Shown here piece after piece: positions 16,829 to 20,324 of a DNA stretch of 64,000 nucleotides (position 1 is its first letter; each line of letters begins with the position of its first letter). This stretch comes from Bacteroidota bacterium (GTDB taxonomy: Bacteria; Bacteroidota; Bacteroidia; Palsa-965). Position numbers and translations under genes: made by a program. The notes beneath the pieces were generated by a model. That model ran no database searches. It saw nothing but the letters and a program-made list of their open reading frames with translations, and had not been told where the DNA came from. Location: the NCBI GenBank assembly GCA_003153435.1, contig PLYR01000137.1:20356-84355 (forward strand), given 5' to 3'.

Positions 16829-17032
16829 GGGAGAGGATCAGTGATTTTATGTTGCAAATGTGTGATGTATTTATAACGGAGGGCTTATACATGTGCGCGA
16901 ATATGTTACATCGTTCACATATCGGGTGAATATGTGAATGATGTAATTAATTGAGAAGAAGTGTAACACTTTCCATTGGAGATCATGCCATTTTTGTTCC
17001 TGAATAGTGAAAACACATTAAGAACAATCCTC

Positions 17033-17629
17033 ATGAAAGAAAACGAAGAAGCCCAGAACACGGTAACCTCCGAAAAGAATAAGAACACTCATATCTCCGG
17101 GATCTTTACCACCCGGGAAAGTGCCGAAAAGGCTTATCATACGGTGCAATCCAAAGGATATGATAAGGACCGAATCCATATCATGATGTCCCCTGAAGCA
17201 CATCAGAAGCATTTCAGTAACGACAAACACTCCCCAAACTTTGATACCCATAACTTAAAAACATCTCCCAATCATCTCAGCAATGAGAAAGAGGGAGCAG
17301 AAACAGGAGCGGCTGTTGGAATTGGTATTGGAGCTATGACAGGAGCGCTGCTAGCCATGGGTACAAGTATTCTGATCCCCGGTTTAGGCATTCTCATCGC
17401 AGGTTCTTTCCTGGCGGGCATCATCGGTGCCGGAGCCGGAGGAGTGACCGGTGGACTGATCGGAGCATTAGTAGGAACAGGTATGCCTGAAGAACATGCT
17501 AAGAAATATGAGAAAGGAATTAAAGACGGACATATTGTGCTTGTTGCTCAACCCCTCAATGAACAAGATGCTGTTCATATTGAAAGTGAATGGAAAAGAC
17601 ATCAGGGAACGGATATTCACAGGGGTTAA
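17033..17629 (+). CDS. General-stress-protein-like protein with glycine-zipper segment
   Basis: HISGIFTTRESAEKAYHTVQSKGYDKDRIHIMMSPEAHQKHF, then GAETGAAVGIGIGAMTGALLAMGT...GAGAGGVTGGLIGALVGTGMPEEHAKKYEKGIKDGHIVLV. Start adjusted to Met at 17033. Confidence 0.75.
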   Translation: MKENEEAQNTVTSEKNKNTHISGIFTTRESAEKAYHTVQSKGYDKDRIHIMMSPEAHQKHFSNDKHSPNFDTHNLKTSPNHLSNEKEGAETGAAVGIGIGAMTGALLAMGTSILIPGLGILIAGSFLAGIIGAGAGGVTGGLIGALVGTGMPEEHAKKYEKGIKDGHIVLVAQPLNEQDAVHIESEWKRHQGTDIHRG

Positions 17630-17633
17630 CAGA

Positions 17634-18305
17634 TAGCTTCCATTTGCTATGCGTAAGCTGCTGTACCACCTTCTTAAGCTTCCATACCATTTTCGTAAGC
17701 TTACGTATGAACTATGGAAGCTACTAAACTACTTTCGTAAGATGCCAAACTGTTTTCTTAAGCTTACGTAGGACAGATGGAAGCTTCCAAACCATTTTCG
17801 TAAGCTGACGTCTGACCTATGGAAGCATCCAAACTACTTTCATAAGCTGCCATACCGTTTTCTTAAGCTAATGAAGTAACTCCTTAAGCTTCCAAACTAC
17901 TTTCAGTAGCTTACAAACCACTTTTGGAAGCTGCTGTACCGTTTTCTACAGCTTAAGCCTGAACAATGGAAGCTTACGAAAGTGGTACAGTAGCTTAAAG
18001 GTTTACTTTCTCAGCTTCCGTAAACACTTTCACAGTTACCGAAAGCACTTTCTCCGCTTTAGCAGGGGGTGCATGAGCTTATAAAAAGGGTACAACAGCA
18101 AATGAAGTTACTTTCTTAAGTAACGGAAACACTCTTTGAGTTTATGCACCTCCTTCATTAACTTAGAAAAGCACTTTTTCAGCTTCCGTTTTCACTTCAT
18201 TAACTGAAAGAAGAACTTTCTCAGCTTCCATTTTCACTTCATTAACTGAAAGAAGCACTTTCTCGGTTTCCATTTTCACTTCATTAACTGAAAGAAGCAC
18301 TTTTT
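17634..18305. repeat. Degenerate 21-bp-period tandem/inverted repeat array, 32 units without indels
   Basis: Segmentation by eye gives 32 consecutive 21-mers. Examples: AAGCTTCCATACCATTTTCGT (17676), AAGCTTACGTATGAACTATGG (17697), AAGCTTCCAAACCATTTTCGT (17781), AAGCTGCCATACCGTTTTCTT (17844), CAGCTTCCATTTTCACTTCAT (18222), TAACTGAAAGAAGCACTTTCT (18243). Confidence 0.93.
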
Positions 18306-18402
18306 CTTCTGAAGCAAAACCTACCGTACAAAGTAGGTATCCTGAATTGGCGAAAGAGAAGCACAGATAACCAAGCGCTTAGCGGTTTGTTTTCCGACGC
18401 TG

Positions 18403-19176
18403 TTAATTGGCATGCATAGCTGCAACAGGCTTACTCAATTGTTTCAAAATAAAACTTGGGAAGAAACGGCTCATAAATCTCAATTGACTCGATTGGCCCG
18501 GGCATATTTCAAATTTATTATTGGCAAATCCCTCCAGAAAAGCTGCCACCATTTTATCAACCGGCATTAGTGTTACATCCTTTAGGTCTGATTCCTTGAA
18601 ATTCTTAATCAAATCTGTTGCAGTTGCAGGAGGAGCAAGCTCAAAAACCTTAACATCGGTGTTCCTCAATTGCTCCCGGAGCGACAATGAATAAGAATGT
18701 AAGGCAGCCTTGGTGGCGCAATATACAGGAGCAATCGCCAGAGGCACGAAAGCCAACCCGGAAGAAACAGCTACGGTAGCAGCATTTTTGTTTTTCTTTA
18801 ACAACGGAAGAAATGTATCATTTATCCAGATGGTTCCTTTCAGATTAATATCAATTTCCTTGGTTAATTCGCCTGGCGATAATTTGTGGTTTTGCAAGTT
18901 GATAGTCTCCATAACCCCTGCATTGTTAATCAATACATTGAGTGCAGGATAATCCTTTGCTATCTGATCATACAGTTTCTTTATATCATTCGCATTACTC
19001 ACATCGCTATTGATGGTTATAACTCCTTTCAATTCATTTTTTACTTTCTGCAACTTCTGATCGTTACGACCGGTTATAATGACGGTATTATTTTTCTTCA
19101 GAAACTCTTTGGCCATCTCATAGCCTATTCCGCTGGAGCCGCCGGTTATTAAGATTGTGTTGCCACTTATATTCAT
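18403..19176 (-). CDS. SDR family NAD(P)-dependent oxidoreductase
   Basis: NTILITGGSSGIGYEMAKEF, INNAGVMET, VAVSSGLAFVPLAIAPVYCATKAALHSYSLSLR. Confidence 0.95.
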   Translation of the reverse strand: MNISGNTILITGGSSGIGYEMAKEFLKKNNTVIITGRNDQKLQKVKNELKGVITINSDVSNANDIKKLYDQIAKDYPALNVLINNAGVMETINLQNHKLSPGELTKEIDINLKGTIWINDTFLPLLKKNKNAATVAVSSGLAFVPLAIAPVYCATKAALHSYSLSLREQLRNTDVKVFELAPPATATDLIKNFKESDLKDVTLMPVDKMVAAFLEGFANNKFEICPGQSSQLRFMSRFFPSFILKQLSKPVAAMHAN

Positions 19177-19820: not shown

Positions 19821-19963
19821 ACTGCAATCCGTTCAAATCTCCGGCCTTCGGCCAGGTCTTTTTCTTTCCTGTCGCTTATGAGTCTGCTTACGCAGTCTCA
19901 ACGCGCCAGAAAAGAAAAATCCCTCTCTGCCTTCGGCAGAGGGGGATTTGAACGGATTGCAGT
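19821..19963. repeat. Perfect 19-bp inverted repeat abutting the tmRNA 3' end
   Basis: ACTGCAATCCGTTCAAATC (19821-19839) and GATTTGAACGGATTGCAGT (19945-19963). Confidence 0.92.
19916..19950 (-). terminator. Intrinsic terminator downstream of ssrA
   Basis: Minus strand: AAATCCCCCTCTGCC-GAA-GGCAGAGAGGGATTTTTCTTTTCT; stable stem followed by a T-rich tract. Confidence 0.75.
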
Positions 19964-20324
19964 GGAGTCGGGCGGATTCGAACCGCCGTCCAAACAAGGA
20001 ATTAATATGCCTTCTACATGCTTAGCTTTCTTTTGGTTTTCGACAAGGCTTGGCAAGGAAGCGGGCCATGAACTTGCTTAGCTCCTTGATCTCGGTTTGT
20101 AAGCGGAGCTTTACGAACCTATCCCGGCATTTGTGATGCTCCGATCCGGACGCCGCTAGGAGTAGCTTCCGGGGGAACAAAGCTAGTTAAGACTGAGTCT
20201 TAAGCAGCAAGGGCGTAGTTAGACTCGCCGTTTGTAGTTTGAGAGTTGATATTAGCGTGCCATATTCCCAACGCACGGCATGCTTACACACTAACCGCGC
20301 TCGCTGTCAAAACCTGTCGACCCC
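19963..20324 (-). ncRNA. ssrA: Transfer-messenger RNA (tmRNA)
   Basis: 5' GGGGTCGAC pairs with 3' CGACTCCA; T-arm GGTTCGAATCCGCC; tag reading frame GCTAATATCAACTCTCAAACTACAAACGGCGAGTCTAACTACGCCCTTGCTGCTTAA (20256 to 20200) = ANINSQTTNGESNYALAA*. Confidence 0.96.

What the first reader, a model, noticed from the sequence alone, without database searches (positions are those of the whole stretch)
17634..18305. A 672-bp intergenic array of 32 units with strict 21-bp phasing and no indels
Seen directly: cutting the sequence every 21 bp from 17634 aligns A/T/C-AGCTT at the start of unit after unit (e.g. 17676 AAGCTTCCATACCATTTTCGT, 17697 AAGCTTACGTATGAACTATGG, 17781 AAGCTTCCAAACCATTTTCGT, 17802 AAGCTGACGTCTGACCTATGG, 17886 AAGCTTCCAAACTACTTTCAG, 18012 CAGCTTCCGTAAACACTTTCA, 18222 CAGCTTCCATTTTCACTTCAT). 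Units have diverged a lot by substitution, yet the register never slips. The array begins 5 bp after the stop of one gene and ends about 100 bp before the stop of a convergent gene. It is not a CRISPR, because there are no unique spacers and units are contiguous. All frames I examined contain stops. Inference: 21 bp equals two B-DNA helical turns, so every unit presents the same DNA face. A phased protein-binding or architectural array, or a structured RNA, would explain retention of length despite sequence drift. The competing explanation is a decayed heptapeptide-coding tandem repeat (21 bp = 7 codons).
Basis: partly seen in the sequence, partly recalled or inferred. Interest (0 to 1): 0.85.

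Follow-up and report, generated by a model that had tools for sequence, protein, structure and literature searches.

The report
Dispersed non-coding 21-bp phased DNA arrays
Between two genes of a soil-type Bacteroidota bacterium lie 32 head-to-tail 21-base DNA units that code for nothing yet never lose step, and this is one of many such arrays scattered between genes in this genus, with a spacing of exactly two turns of the DNA helix whose purpose is unknown.

Summary
Window 17634-18305 holds 32 contiguous 21-bp units with no phase slip, although about 40% of bases differ from the unit consensus. It is not a lone oddity. The same genome has five more full-length relatives (70-72% identity) in other intergenic regions, plus other 21/42/63-bp arrays of unrelated sequence. 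A congener has about 6 such arrays per 100 kb. In a survey of about 390 Bacteroidia genomes, AAGCTT triplets spaced 21 bp apart occur in 10 genomes, spaced 22 bp in 0 and 24 bp in 1. The heptapeptide-gene rival fails: no array has fewer stops than column-permuted controls (combined p=0.96), substitutions show no codon phase, and no frame is enriched in synonymous change. A conserved RNA fold is not supported (covariation term positive, no Rfam family). What is conserved is strand-symmetric: six positions per unit (AGCT, A11, T17), mirrored about the AAGCTT dyad (r=0.97), with units lying in both orientations. I favour a duplex-DNA array, possibly a helically phased docking site for a dimeric DNA-binding protein. 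That function is inference, and a selfish or neutral 21-bp minisatellite is almost as likely. No cognate protein was identified.

The parts
17634..18305 (.). Array of 32 contiguous 21-bp units, signature N-AGCT-NNNNN-A-NNNNN-T-NNNN, no phase slip
17634..17990 (+). First 17 units: AAGCTT-rich, forward-type (AAGCTTCCAAACTACTTTCGT) and reverse-type (AAGCTTACGTAGGACAAATGG-like) units, with 63-bp and 105-bp higher-order periods
17991..18305 (+). Last 15 units: AAGCTT eroded to CAGCTT/TAACTT/TAACTG, still in the same 21-bp register; the last six units form a 42-bp repeat
16976..17629 (+). Upstream gene, 217 aa, glycine-rich central segment, no Pfam match; stop codon 5 bp before the array
18403..19176 (-). 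Convergent short-chain dehydrogenase/reductase gene (adh_short, E=3e-46)
18319..18338 (-). Terminator-like hairpin just outside the array, downstream of the dehydrogenase gene end (one found, 0.5 expected by chance)

Best explanation
A member of a family of non-coding, dispersed, helically phased DNA arrays. Shown: 21-bp units repeat in strict register, lie between genes, occur in either unit orientation around a palindromic AGCT junction, keep six dyad-symmetric positions while the rest drift, and recur as paralogs and as unrelated-sequence arrays across the genome and genus. Inferred: because 21 bp is two turns of B-DNA, each unit presents the same face, so a dimeric, polymerising DNA-binding (architectural or boundary) protein could load along about 30 units. 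Selection for this platform would keep the spacing while most bases drift.
For: Paralogs: five relatives of about 580-656 aligned bp at 70-72% identity, intergenic. Length is nearly constant (about 29-34 units) and larger indels between paralogs are 21, 41 or 42 bp. Spacing: 21 bp in 10/395 genomes, 22 bp in 0/375, 24 bp in 1/375; the reversed control pattern gives 7, 0 and 0 genomes. In G000 11 of 14 and in G001 24 of 26 intergenic tandem arrays have periods that are multiples of 21; none of five in other genera do. Constraint: divergence between paralogs differs by unit position (p=0.0002; first half p<0.001, second half p=0.019). The conservation profile over 195 units is symmetric about the AAGCTT dyad (r=0.97, p<0.0002), with 97 forward-like and 84 reverse-like units, as expected of a strand-blind duplex-DNA constraint. 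The AGCT/A11/T17 signature also fits a G001 array family whose other positions differ. Not coding. No covariation support for an RNA fold.
Against: No cognate protein was found or sought systematically. Arrays differ wholly in sequence between families, so one sequence-specific protein cannot serve all of them. Only some families are dyad-symmetric. A/T composition is not phased at 10.5 bp. Arrays are absent from orthologous sites in congeners and none was seen in a 100-kb sample of G003, so they are not essential there. Mixed unit orientation alone would make the profile symmetric. Ancient higher-order duplication can create uneven columns without selection.
Confidence: 0.42

Rival explanations
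1. A selfish or neutral dispersed minisatellite. The 21-bp period comes from the duplication or spreading mechanism (or common descent from one 21-bp array), and the arrays have no host function.
For: Presence/absence differs between congeners at the same site and density varies from about 0 to 6 per 100 kb. Many unrelated unit sequences, copy-number variation between arrays, higher-order 42/63/105-bp units and a composite flank next to an IS110-family transposase in G001 all look like repeat turnover.
Against: Does not by itself explain unit-position-specific slow evolution between paralogs, the retained six-position signature in otherwise drifted units, or few phase slips against at least about 480 substitutions. 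No terminal inverted repeats or target duplications were seen.
Confidence: 0.4
2. A decayed heptapeptide-repeat (coiled-coil) gene: 21 bp = 7 codons.
For: The AAG-CTT frame reads K-L-x-x-x-[LFV]-x, a coiled-coil-like heptad pattern; some sister-genome arrays have fully open frames.
Against: Stops in all frames of all six paralogs, several at shared positions. No array has fewer stops than column-permuted controls, combined p=0.96. No codon phase in substitutions (0.298/0.258/0.291; p=0.17). No synonymous excess in any frame in either species. The near-symmetric reverse strand gives the same heptad pattern.
Confidence: 0.06
3. A large structured non-coding RNA built of repeats.
For: Folding energy z = -7.1 (+ strand) and -5.4 (- strand) against dinucleotide shuffles.
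Against: Inverted repeats fold well by construction. The covariation term over the six paralogs is positive (+4.78). Within-unit complementarity is not above expectation at most pairs and below it at several. No Rfam family.
Confidence: 0.07
4. An assembly artefact of a metagenome-assembled genome.
For: The genome is in 149 contigs; in G001 some arrays lie at contig ends, so unit counts there are uncertain.
Against: The window array's units are mutually distinct, so short reads can place them. Paralogs sit in different unique contexts and an independent assembly shows the same phenomenon.
Confidence: 0.02

Closest known systems
TAACTGA heptamer direct repeats of Beggiatoaceae, Cyanobacteria and some Bacteroidetes (PMC4679880)
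   Same: Intergenic tandem repeats, sporadic across overlapping phyla, up to 43 copies, function unknown
   Different: 7-bp units of one sequence, in the Beggiatoaceae genome mostly just upstream of start codons; here 21-bp diverged units of many sequences in all gene contexts. TAACTGA itself occurs three times in the window array but is not enriched window-wide
Cyanobacterial STRR/LTRR tandem repeats (from memory)
   Same: Dispersed non-coding tandem repeats
   Different: Unit lengths 7 and about 37 bp, no strict two-turn phasing known to me; not tested here
REP/BIME and other palindromic intergenic elements (from memory; a survey is PMC3733652)
   Same: Dispersed, intergenic, dyad-symmetric, units in both orientations
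   Different: REPs are 20-40-bp palindromic hairpins in small clusters; here about 30 contiguous 21-bp units without hairpin signal inside the unit
Partition/iteron-type phased operator arrays (from memory)
   Same: Tandem sites about two helical turns apart that let a DNA-binding protein load side by side
   Different: Those sit beside a replication or partition gene in one or few copies; here arrays are dispersed with no cognate gene beside them

Membership tests
CRISPR array | Near-identical repeats separated by unique spacers | tested here: not met
   Units are contiguous, diverged and without unique spacers
Heptapeptide/coiled-coil coding repeat | Open frame or stop avoidance and synonymous bias | tested here: not met
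REP/BIME elements | Each unit is a self-complementary hairpin of 20-40 nt | tested here: not met
   Within-unit complementarity at spacer pairs is not above expectation; the strongest dyad is at the unit junction instead
Known structured RNA family | Match to an Rfam covariance model | tested here: not met
Non-autonomous transposon (MITE) | Terminal inverted repeats and target-site duplication | tested here: inconclusive
   Paralog ends partly shared but no inverted ends seen by eye; the congener site lacking an array is too diverged to define a duplication
Dispersed intergenic minisatellite | Multiple non-coding tandem arrays between genes | tested here: met
Phased protein-binding array | Occupied by a DNA-binding protein | not testable with these tools
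   needs footprinting or ChIP
Phased protein-binding array | Constant spacing near whole helical turns with conserved symmetric positions | tested here: met

The most novel reading that the evidence does not exclude
A new class of bacterial chromosome element: sequence-divergent arrays whose only universal property is a two-helical-turn ruler. They would be built or kept by a dedicated machinery or protein that reads DNA-face periodicity and either unit orientation, giving a bacterial analogue of phased satellite DNA.
Probability: 0.25. Interest if true: 0.88.

Novelty: new variant of a known kind. Interest (0 to 1): 0.62.

Why it matters
Bacterial intergenic DNA is usually under pressure to shrink. 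Hundreds of bases of non-coding repeat kept in exact helical register at many sites, with different sequences, point either to an unrecognised architectural system or to a duplication mechanism with a 21-bp ruler. Both are testable in any culturable relative, and the class-wide bias for 21 over 22 or 24 bp makes the question general.

Tried and rejected
Coding origin: six-frame stops, mod-3 conservation, synonymous test and stop permutation all negative. RNA: MFE, alifold covariation and Rfam gave no support beyond inverted-repeat folding. CRISPR: no spacers. Phage or plasmid origin: no blastn match. Orthologous-locus comparison: congener sites lack arrays, so age per locus could not be fixed. 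Wrap-around DP indel counting gave spurious compensating gaps in diverged units and was replaced by phase tracking; most jumps that one search reports for other arrays lie near loosely set edges. The dyad correlation of paralog rates at another centre (sum 22) was not interpreted. 10.5-bp A/T phasing: not found. Seven literature searches of the open-access library found no description of 21-bp phased non-coding arrays in Bacteroidota. That library lacks most subscription papers, so absence of a report is weak evidence.

Full report
1. Observation. Cutting 17634-18305 every 21 bp gives 32 aligned units. Lag identities are 0.48 (21), 0.59 (42), 0.52 (63), 0.57 (84) and 0.54 (105). The largest value over lags 5-129 in 500 shuffles is 0.35, and this is the strongest periodic segment of the 64-kb window. 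TRF sees the same array at 21, 42 and 105 bp. A phase-tracking model gives no phase jump at 40% mismatch to the unit profile. The array starts 5 bp after a stop codon and ends 98 bp before a convergent dehydrogenase gene.

2. It is a dispersed family. blastn in the same genome finds five more arrays on other contigs (C13, C51, C59, C33, C136), aligned over up to 656 bp at 70-72% identity. They have about 29-34 units and the same order of unit types, and the larger length differences between them are 21, 41 or 42 bp. They sit in convergent, tandem and divergent intergenic regions. The G001 locus orthologous to C51 (same neighbouring genes) has a short intergenic region with no array, and the G002 orthologue of the window dehydrogenase gene has none next to it. 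Arrays are therefore gained or lost between species.

3. The 21-bp ruler is wider than this family. A periodicity survey of genome samples found arrays with periods 21, 42 or 63 and unrelated unit sequences. In one search, intergenic tandem arrays with periods that are multiples of 21 number 11 of 14 in G000 (752 kb), 24 of 26 in congener G001 (381 kb) and 1 of 1 in G002 (99 kb). In G003, G004, G005, G008 and G050 (about 485 kb together) there were none. Some G000 stretches were chosen because of weak hits, so the G000 rate is slightly biased; one search is a 305-kb sample chosen by contig number alone and still shows about seven. G001 contig C6 has the same length as contig JABDAO010000006.1, a Bacteroidetes MAG record. 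Across Bacteroidia, three AAGCTT at 21-bp spacing occur in 10 of 395 genomes, at 22 bp in 0 of 375 and at 24 bp in 1 of 375; the reversed control pattern gives 7, 0 and 0 genomes. The excess is for 21 bp, not for AAGCTT and not for multiples of three in general.

4. Not a gene. All six paralogs have stops in all frames. Over 41 arrays, the lowest stop count of any frame is no lower than after permuting unit columns (0 of 41 at p<0.05, combined p=0.96). Conservation has no mod-3 signal. Substitutions between paralogs are 0.298, 0.258 and 0.291 by codon phase (p=0.17). Synonymous changes are not enriched in any of six frames in either the G000 or the G001 family. The K-L-x-x-x-[LFV]-x look of one frame owes much to AAGCTT reading K-L on both strands. 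One sampled array (L236) may be a true coiled-coil gene; the intergenic class can miss such cases because ORFs made mostly of array were set aside there, which is why the test carries the weight.

5. Not evidently an RNA. Both strands fold better than shuffles, as any array with inverted units would. The six-way alignment gives a positive covariation term (+4.78), units are not self-complementary beyond expectation, and Rfam has no match.

6. DNA-level constraint. Over 195 units the conserved positions are A2 G3 C4 T5, A11 and T17; most other positions are weak. The information profile is symmetric about the AAGCTT dyad with r=0.97. Units occur about equally in the two orientations (97 versus 84), which itself produces symmetry, so the symmetry shows strand-blind use rather than hairpins. 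In the window the six-position signature averages about 5.3 of 6 in register against 1.56 background and falls off at the array borders. Paralogs diverge unevenly by unit position (p=0.0002), in both halves of the array. Few phase slips of 1 bp are visible in the six paralogs (C13, C33 and the C51 end) against at least about 480 substitutions (628 columns at a mean minimum of about 0.77 changes). Bacterial indel-to-substitution ratios near 1:10 to 1:20 (general knowledge, not measured here) would predict more. A G001 family with otherwise different sequence (AAGCTTAGGGAACATGTCGGG) has the same AGCT/A11/T17 positions.

7. Mechanism. Shown: non-coding, dispersed, strictly phased, strand-symmetric, partly constrained. 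Inferred: the spacing is kept because 21 bp is two helical turns and something reads one DNA face; a dimeric polymerising DNA-binding protein is my first choice (0.42). Nearly as likely is a selfish or neutral minisatellite whose duplication mechanism or ancestry fixes 21 bp (0.40). Intrinsic curvature is not favoured, because A/T power at 10.5 bp is not elevated above the other harmonics. No cognate protein was identified.

8. Novelty. Dispersed bacterial intergenic tandem repeats are known, for example TAACTGA heptamers (PMC4679880, read). I found no report of diverged 21-bp phased non-coding arrays, within the limits of that library. Filed as a new variant of a known kind.

Noticed in passing
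window 19962-20324 (-): tmRNA gene with tag peptide GESNYALAA, about 1.6 kb from the array
   Followed up: no
L014 3600-4200 (G000:C121, about 68,100-68,700): Another non-coding array with 42-bp alternating units sharing AAGCTT, T5 and T17 with the window family
   Followed up: partly
L236 4461-5654 (G000:C8): 63-bp periodic array in a long nearly open frame with NEEL-type heptads, probably a genuine coiled-coil gene rather than a non-coding array
   Followed up: partly
L165 1-1678 (G001:C2): An IS110-family transposase gene (PF02371) lies directly beside the conserved right end of a G001 array; other copies seen lack it
   Followed up: partly
L165, L173, L180 (G001 contig ends): Several G001 contigs end inside 21-bp arrays, so arrays probably break assemblies and are under-counted in draft genomes
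   Followed up: no
L064, L113 (Bacteroidales MAG), L118 (Planctomycetaceae MAG), L086, L087, L112 (Nostocales): Further 21-bp arrays, several per genome, in other phyla; not tested for coding
   Followed up: partly
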